Shown here piece by piece: positions 10,320 to 10,640 of a stretch of DNA of 64,000 bases. A model generated the notes under the pieces. That model was not told where the DNA came from. It saw only the letters and a program-made list of their open reading frames with translations, and ran no database searches. The first letter of the stretch is position 1, and each line of letters starts with the position of its first letter. The position numbers and the translations under genes are program-made. The stretch lies in contig NZ_AQWN01000004.1 in assembly GCF_000376385.1 (NCBI RefSeq), positions 186,001 through 250,000 of the forward strand, read 5' to 3'. The DNA is from Desulfurispora thermophila DSM 16022. GTDB taxonomy: Bacteria; Bacillota; Desulfotomaculia; Desulfotomaculales; Desulfurisporaceae.

Positions 10320-10368
10320 TTGCAATATGGGCGATTATCTTTTAATCTTAGTCACATAAGTTATGTGA
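10320..10368 (+). promoter_or_regulatory. Candidate nif promoter with palindromic operator at the start site
   Basis: TTGCAA (10320-10325), 17 bp, TAATCT (10343-10348). A perfect 17-bp palindrome, TCACATAAGTTATGTGA (10352-10368), covers the expected start near 10355, where a bound repressor would block initiation. The 10088-10319 stretch before it holds the peroxiredoxin promoter side and an AT-rich run with three ATATAGA copies (10250-10290), but no gene. Confidence 0.45.
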
Positions 10369-10410
10369 GTAATCAAGTAAGAGCGCAGTGTTGGCGCGTA
10401 CAGGCAATGC

Positions 10411-10435
10411 CGCCCGGTGGGTATACCGCCGGGCG
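10411..10435 (+). other. GC-rich hairpin in the nif leader
   Basis: CGCCCGG (10411-10417) pairs with CCGGGCG (10429-10435), with an inner GG/CC. It is followed by ATAGTTATTT, a weak T-tract. It may act as a poor terminator or a stability element. Confidence 0.4.
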
Positions 10436-10478
10436 ATAGTTATTTCAGGGGCGAAGCTTCTACTTTCAATGAATATAA

Positions 10479-10534
10479 AGCGAAGACGCTGGCGGGCGGG
10501 GCGATGAGTTGGGCCCCTTAAGCCAGCGCTTTTT
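10479..10534 (+). terminator. nif leader terminator with competing small hairpin
   Basis: CGCTGGC (10487-10493) pairs with GCCAGCG (10522-10528), enclosing GGGGC/GCCCC (10498-10502, 10513-10517), then CTTTTTG. The upstream AGCG-AAGA-CGCT hairpin (10479-10490) shares the CGCT and competes with it. The terminator lies about 140 nt before nifH, inside its transcript. Confidence 0.55.
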
Positions 10535-10539
10535 GTTTT

Positions 10540-10640
10540 CCCGGCAGGGCGGCCGGGTAATGCAGAACACCTGACCATATTTTTGTTGTGAATGGCAGTG
10601 CGAAGACGCCTGTTTCCCGGCCTGGAACGGGCGTCTTTTC
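10540..10640 (+). promoter_or_regulatory. Second nif leader attenuator
   Basis: A perfect 6-bp stem, CCCGGC/GCCGGG (10540-10545, 10552-10557), has hexaloop AGGGCG. A second hairpin, 10596-10612 (CAG-GC / GC-CTG, one bulge), has hexaloop GAAGAC. A terminator, AAGACGCC (10603-10610) with GGCGTCTT (10630-10637), is followed by TTC-TATT and overlaps the second hairpin. The 10-mer GCGAAGACGC occurs at 10480-10489 and again at 10600-10609, each time overlapping a terminator arm. Confidence 0.5.

What the first reader, a model, noticed from the sequence alone, without database searches (positions are those of the whole stretch)
10320..10640. nif leader: operator over the start site plus tandem attenuators with a repeated 10-mer
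About 320 nt separate the likely start from nifH. A 17-bp palindrome covers the start. Downstream lie at least two terminators with T-runs, each with its 5' arm overlapped by the same 10-mer, GCGAAGACGC (10480 and 10600), which can fold into a competing small hairpin. One hairpin (10540-10557) has hexaloop AGGGCG. This suggests the nif operon is switched by transcription antitermination as well as by a DNA-bound regulator, with shared logic to the amtB leader.
Basis: partly seen in the sequence, partly recalled or inferred. Interest (0 to 1): 0.72.

Follow-up and report, generated by a model that had tools for sequence, protein, structure and literature searches.

The report
ANTAR-controlled terminators before nitrogenase genes
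The stretch before the nitrogenase genes of this Desulfotomaculum-like bacterium holds three transcription terminators, each fused to the small RNA hairpin that ANTAR antiterminator proteins bind, so nitrogen fixation is probably switched on by letting RNA polymerase read through; this is a known kind of nitrogen switch, found here in a somewhat decayed form.

Summary
Between a weak promoter (TTGCAA-17-TAATCT, 10320-10348) and nifH (10673) lie three terminators: T0 (10411-10435, poor U-tract), T1 (about 10480-10535) and T2 (10602-10638). In each, a mini-hairpin GC[RNNGNN]GC overlaps the terminator's 5' arm; no shuffle of 1000 had even two such composites. The repeated 10-mer GCGAAGACGC is that mini-hairpin in T1 and T2: the P2 hairpin of an ANTAR-target RNA. 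In 25 of 26 usable nifH leaders from the same class, one to three P1-linker-P2 motifs sit at terminators. Without selecting on loop content, loop position 1 is a purine in 94/94 and position 4 is G in 92/94. A covariance model built without the window ranks T0, T1 and T2 as its three best sites in the leader, and finds amtB1, amtB2, ANTAR-glnA and glnA leaders in the genome. The genome has three ANTAR response regulators, two beside glnA. So antitermination and shared logic with amtB are supported. The window's copy is degenerate: T0's P1 has a seven-base loop, T1/T2 lack a clear P1. The palindrome is unique in the genome and absent from relatives, so the DNA-bound regulator is unsupported. 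ANTAR control of nitrogenase leaders was predicted in 2012.

The parts
10320..10348 (+). candidate sigma-70 promoter, TTGCAA - 17 nt - TAATCT (weak -10)
   Evidence: sequence; relative L005 has TTGCAA-17-TATAAT at the corresponding place before its first ANTAR motif. Start not mapped.
10348..10372 (.). palindrome TTAGTCACATAAGTTATGTGAGTAA (17-bp perfect core 10352-10368) over the inferred start; possible operator or 5' RNA hairpin
   Evidence: unique in genome; absent in relatives
10383..10397 (+). T0 P1-like hairpin GCGC[AGTGTTG]GCGC, seven-base loop
   Evidence: fold; R1 match 10381-10416, 9.2 bits
10403..10414 (+). T0 P2 hairpin GGC[AATGCC]GCC (A1, G4)
10411..10435 (+). T0 terminator-like hairpin CGCCCGGTGG-GTATA-CCGCCGGGCG, poor U-tract ATAGTTATTT
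10479..10490 (+). T1 P2 hairpin AGC[GAAGAC]GCT, first copy of the 10-mer GCGAAGACGC (10480-10489); no canonical P1 found
   Evidence: R1 match 10452-10492, 14.3 bits, best site in the leader
10480..10535 (+). T1 terminator (GCGAAGACGCTGGC...GCCAGCGCTTTTTG)
   Evidence: fold -31.2 kcal/mol; sequence
10540..10557 (+). hairpin CCCGGC[AGGGCG]GCCGGG; ANTAR-like loop but not in a P1/P2 position
10600..10609 (+). T2 P2 core GC[GAAGAC]GC, second copy of the 10-mer; no canonical P1 found
   Evidence: R1 partial match, 5.4 bits
10602..10638 (+). T2 terminator GAAGACGCCTGTTTC...GGAACGGGCGTCTTTTC
10662..10684 (+). ribosome-binding site AAGGAGGG and nifH start (ATGATGCGTCAG)
   Evidence: sequence; NifH TIGR01287 467 bits
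7145..7205 (+). amtB leader unit 1: P1 GGTAC[GATGTT]GTATC, P2-like C[GATGCA]G with a mismatched stem, then a terminator ending about 7205
   Evidence: R1 16.0 bits
7249..7310 (+). amtB leader unit 2: P1 GTCC[GGTGCA]GGAC, linker AATTTT, P2 GGGC[GAGGAT]GCCC, terminator GCCCCGG...CCGGGGC
   Evidence: R1 17.1 bits, E 0.008 in the window

Best explanation
The 320-nt nif leader is a series of three ANTAR-responsive attenuators. Without active ANTAR protein, RNA polymerase stops mainly at T1 and T2 (and perhaps T0). Under nitrogen limitation a phosphorylated, dimeric REC-ANTAR response regulator, most likely the one encoded in front of glnA, binds the R1/G4 hexaloops of the nascent hairpins and holds P2 (the 10-mer). 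Because P2 shares bases with each terminator's 5' arm, the terminator cannot form and the nif operon (nifH, nifI1, nifI2, nifD, nifK and onward) is transcribed. The same protein would switch amtB1, amtB2 and the glnA genes. Shown: the sequence elements, their mutual exclusivity on paper, the conserved family in relatives, the regulators in the genome. Inferred: termination, binding, the signal, and which ANTAR protein acts.
For: Three P2-terminator composites against none to one in 1000 shuffles. Model R1, built from relatives only, ranks T1, T0 and T2 first to third in the leader (E 0.00034, 0.0086, 0.091 for 451 nt with filters off). Orthologous nifH leaders: 25 of 26 usable ones in the class carry one to three P1-linker-P2 units, and none was found in the leaders examined from more distant Clostridia and other groups (L045-L059). 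TAC-N6-GTA and GGC-N6-GCY loops taken without regard to loop content: purine at position 1 in 34/34 and 60/60, G at position 4 in 34/34 and 58/60. Own-genome hits precede amtB2, glnA, ANTAR-glnA and amtB1. Three ANTAR regulators, two next to glnA; the L001 protein matches EutV of structures 6WSH/6WW6 (E 1e-33) and keeps the SMNKR contact motif. Across 113 genomes R1 hits go with ANTAR genes: 83 of 99 with, 3 of 14 without (Fisher p 5e-6, not corrected for kinship).
Against: Single-site scores in the window leader (5-14 bits) are not significant genome-wide; the case rests on their joint placement and on orthology. T0's P1 has a seven-base loop and T0 has a poor U-tract. T1 and T2 have no canonical P1, which EutV needs in vivo (PMC3369931). 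No expression, term-seq or binding data exist here, and the kinase is unknown.
Confidence: 0.8

Rival explanations
1. The leader is a decaying relic: the ANTAR units once worked, but with P1 lost in T1 and T2 they now act as constitutive partial attenuators, and nif is controlled otherwise (at the promoter, through the palindrome, or after translation by the NifI1/NifI2 PII-like proteins).
For: P1 is missing or irregular in all three units, whereas amtB1, amtB2 and glnA leaders of the same genome are closer to canonical. nifI1- and nifI2-like PII genes lie inside the operon.
Against: All three P2 loops still obey R1/G4 and still overlap terminators. The EutV-RNA structure shows each hexaloop is bound singly (PMC8934654), and many relatives' nif-proximal units also have weak or unrecognised P1s.
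Confidence: 0.13
2. The palindrome over the start is an operator for a DNA-binding regulator that adds promoter control on top of antitermination (compatible with the best explanation).
For: 12-bp arms with one mismatched pair, overlapping the inferred start.
Against: Only copy in the genome, no counterpart in relatives' nif leaders, no NrpR homologue found; chance of any such palindrome in the region about 2.6%. It may equally be a 5' RNA hairpin (-5.6 kcal/mol).
Confidence: 0.2
3. The leader is another kind of cis-element (riboswitch, T-box, leader-peptide attenuator).
For: Tandem terminators alone do not name the effector.
Against: No Rfam family reaches threshold in the leader; no evident leader peptide; loop conservation matches ANTAR targets.
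Confidence: 0.04

Closest known systems
ANTAR-target dual-hairpin antiterminator RNAs (Ramesh et al. 2012, PMC3369931), including computed nitrogenase leaders in Pelobacter carbinolicus and nitrogen operons of Desulfotomaculum acetoxidans and D. reducens
   Same: Tandem units in a 5' leader of a nitrogen operon; hexaloop mini-hairpins; P2 shares bases with an intrinsic terminator; genome encodes REC-ANTAR regulators and shows a nitrogen regulon.
   Different: Loop position 1 is G about as often as A; P1 is irregular in T0 and not found in T1/T2; a palindrome precedes the first unit.
Enterococcus faecalis eut leaders and EutV (PMC3369931, PMC8934654; structures 6WSH and 6WW6)
   Same: Hairpin logic, several attenuators, response-regulator ANTAR protein of the same architecture.
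   Different: Nitrogen fixation genes rather than ethanolamine use; the eut loops are reported with A at position 1.
Klebsiella nasF leader and NasR
   Same: Hexaloop with key first and fourth positions, terminator overlap, nitrogen genes (as described in PMC3369931).
   Different: NasR has a nitrate-sensing NIT domain, not a receiver domain.
Geobacter sulfurreducens GnfK/GnfR (named nitrogen-fixation histidine kinase and response regulator in PMC7962754; an ANTAR-type antitermination role is recalled from memory, Ueki and Lovley 2010, not read here)
   Same: Two-component control of nitrogen fixation, by an ANTAR regulator as recalled.
   Different: Different phylum; not compared by sequence here.

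Membership tests
ANTAR-target RNA (dual-hairpin antiterminator) | P2 mini-hairpin with six-base loop and G at position 4 | tested here: met
   AATGCC, GAAGAC, GAAGAC at T0, T1, T2
ANTAR-target RNA (dual-hairpin antiterminator) | A at loop position 1 | tested here: inconclusive
   A in T0, G in T1 and T2; G is as common as A in relatives' nif leaders (33 of 60 P2 loops)
ANTAR-target RNA (dual-hairpin antiterminator) | P2 overlaps the 5' arm of an intrinsic terminator | tested here: met
   three of three; at most one composite in any of 1000 shuffles
ANTAR-target RNA (dual-hairpin antiterminator) | P1 hexaloop hairpin 5-12 nt upstream of P2 | tested here: not met
   T0 has a seven-base-loop P1 with a 5-nt linker; none recognised for T1 or T2. 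Met in relatives' leaders and in this genome's amtB and glnA leaders. So the window leader is described as a degenerate relative by orthology and as working like an ANTAR target, not as a full dual-hairpin member.
ANTAR-target RNA (dual-hairpin antiterminator) | genome encodes an ANTAR protein | tested here: met
   three, over the Pfam cut-off
ANTAR-target RNA (dual-hairpin antiterminator) | binding by ANTAR protein and regulated read-through | not testable with these tools
   needs experiment
NrpR-type operator | NrpR homologue in the genome | tested here: not met
   no PF01995 match

The most novel reading that the evidence does not exclude
In Desulfotomaculum-type bacteria ANTAR targets come in two grades: A1 loops in glnA-type leaders and frequent G1 loops in nif and some amt leaders. 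The grade sets affinity, or which of two ANTAR paralogues binds, so that nitrogen assimilation genes are released before nitrogenase. P2 loops with G1: nif 33/60, glnA/ANTAR 1/19 (naive Fisher p 1e-4). The second glnA-side ANTAR protein has lost the Asn/Arg RNA-contact residues.
Probability: 0.22. Interest if true: 0.55.

Novelty: new member of a known kind. Interest (0 to 1): 0.36.

Why it matters
It names the likely nitrogen switch for nif in a clade of anaerobic diazotrophs as RNA-level antitermination, and points to the candidate regulator beside glnA. It also suggests that the accepted A1 rule for ANTAR loops is too strict for this clade: searches that fix A1 would miss about half of the nif P2 hairpins. 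The window's form, P2 without a clear P1, is a natural test of the single-hexaloop binding model.

Tried and rejected
Rfam scans: nothing above threshold. Treating 10540-10557 as the P1 of T2: linker of 42 nt, rejected against the working range of 5-12 nt. Looking for a palindrome regulon and for NrpR: none. A weak wobble-paired stand-in for T2's P1 near 10578: not convincing, left out. Covariation on alignment A1 looks strong, but the rows were chosen for having stems, so it is not used as evidence. Paper searches for direct experiments on ANTAR control of nif in Clostridia found none held.

Full report
Setting. The window lies in a 2.8-Mb genome that is the only one held of its family in a Desulfotomaculum-type class; named relatives by NifH are Desulfallas, Desulfocucumis, Desulfoscipio and Pelotomaculum. 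The leader precedes nifH, two PII-like genes (nifI1, nifI2), nifD, nifK and the rest of a nif operon. The gene upstream, which reads as a peroxiredoxin, is divergent, so the leader is a true 5' region.

Observation. A third unit, T0, was overlooked: P2 GGC[AATGCC]GCC overlapping the hairpin 10411-10435. Counting only GC[RNNGNN]GC mini-hairpins that share their 3' side with a terminator arm, the leader has three; 982 of 1000 dinucleotide shuffles have none and 18 have one.

What it is. Leaders of nifH from the same class were extracted in the right orientation. Twenty-five of 26 usable ones carry one to three units of the form GATAC[RNNGNN]GTATC - a linker of mostly 3 to 13 nt - GGC[RNNGNN]GCC, with a terminator starting in the second hairpin. 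The finder required R1 and G4, so loop content was counted again without that condition, on stems alone: TAC-N6-GTA has R1 34/34 and G4 34/34; GGC-N6-GCY has R1 60/60 and G4 58/60. These are the hallmarks of ANTAR-target RNAs (PMC3369931, PMC8934654), with the difference that position 1 is A or G.

Held-out test. Model R1 was built from 32 relatives' units without the window. In the window at large its best two hits are the two units of the amtB leader. In the nif leader, with filters off, its three best sites are T1 (14.3 bits), T0 (9.2) and T2 (5.4). In the whole genome the best hits precede amtB2 (33.3 bits), a glnA (26.9) and the ANTAR-glnA pair (24.6). Nothing in the training set came from gln or amt leaders. 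Over 113 genomes, R1 hits are found in 83 of 99 genomes with an ANTAR gene and 3 of 14 without; kinship is not corrected for and some genomes are incomplete.

Regulators. Three ANTAR response regulators: one directly before glnA (L001), one before a second glnA-like gene (L002), one beside a gene that reads like a microcompartment shell gene (L003). L001 aligns with EutV and keeps the residues equivalent to Met172, Asn173 and Arg175 of the RNA-binding loop (SMNKR); L002 reads AMDNG there and has lost the Asn and Arg (residue roles from PMC8934654). The L001 protein is therefore the better candidate for nif.

Mechanism. P2 and terminator use the same bases in T0, T1 and T2, so protein-stabilised P2 would block termination. 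What weakens the case is P1: T0 has a seven-base loop, T1 and T2 have none that I can defend. In E. faecalis, P1 and a suitable linker (5-12 nt occur; 3 and 14 fail) are needed in vivo, while the crystal structure shows single hexaloops bound one at a time. Either P2 alone suffices here, or the units work poorly. I hold ANTAR control at 0.8 and decay to a relic at 0.13.

Palindrome. It is perfect over 17 bp, but single in the genome, absent in relatives, and moderately likely by chance. It may be an operator, a 5' RNA hairpin, or nothing.

Two grades of loop. In glnA/ANTAR leaders of relatives P2 has A1 in 18 of 19 cases; in nif leaders G1 in 33 of 60. In this genome the ANTAR-glnA, glnA and amtB2 units are A1, both amtB1 units are G1, and nif is mixed. 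Whether this sets affinity or partner choice is open; the sequences are related, so the p-value is naive.

Novelty. ANTAR control of nitrogenase and ammonium-transporter leaders, with Desulfotomaculum nitrogen operons among the examples, was predicted in 2012. This is a new, somewhat irregular member.

Noticed in passing
window 7100-7320: The amtB leader holds two tandem ANTAR units with G1 loops, plus a further hairpin CCAATC[GAGGGG]GATTGG at 7228-7245.
   Followed up: yes
window 4915-7086: A hybrid histidine kinase with receiver domain lies directly upstream of the amtB leader; it could be the kinase of the nitrogen circuit.
   Followed up: no
window 8863-9119: Two short overlapping reading frames after amtB look like one small protein broken by a frameshift or stop.
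   Followed up: no
L003 1075-2690: The third ANTAR regulator is followed by a terminator-bearing leader (weak R1 hit, 12.7 bits), a gene that reads like a EutS-type microcompartment shell gene, and a EutP-like GTPase: a probable EutV-type circuit of its own.
   Followed up: partly
L002 1874-1950: The leader of the second glnA-like gene has GGGAC[AACGGC]GTCCC whose 3' arm overlaps a terminator by eye; model R1 missed it.
   Followed up: partly
window 10592-10675: An ATG at 10592 is in frame with nifH and just before T2; no ribosome-binding site seen, probably not used.
   Followed up: no
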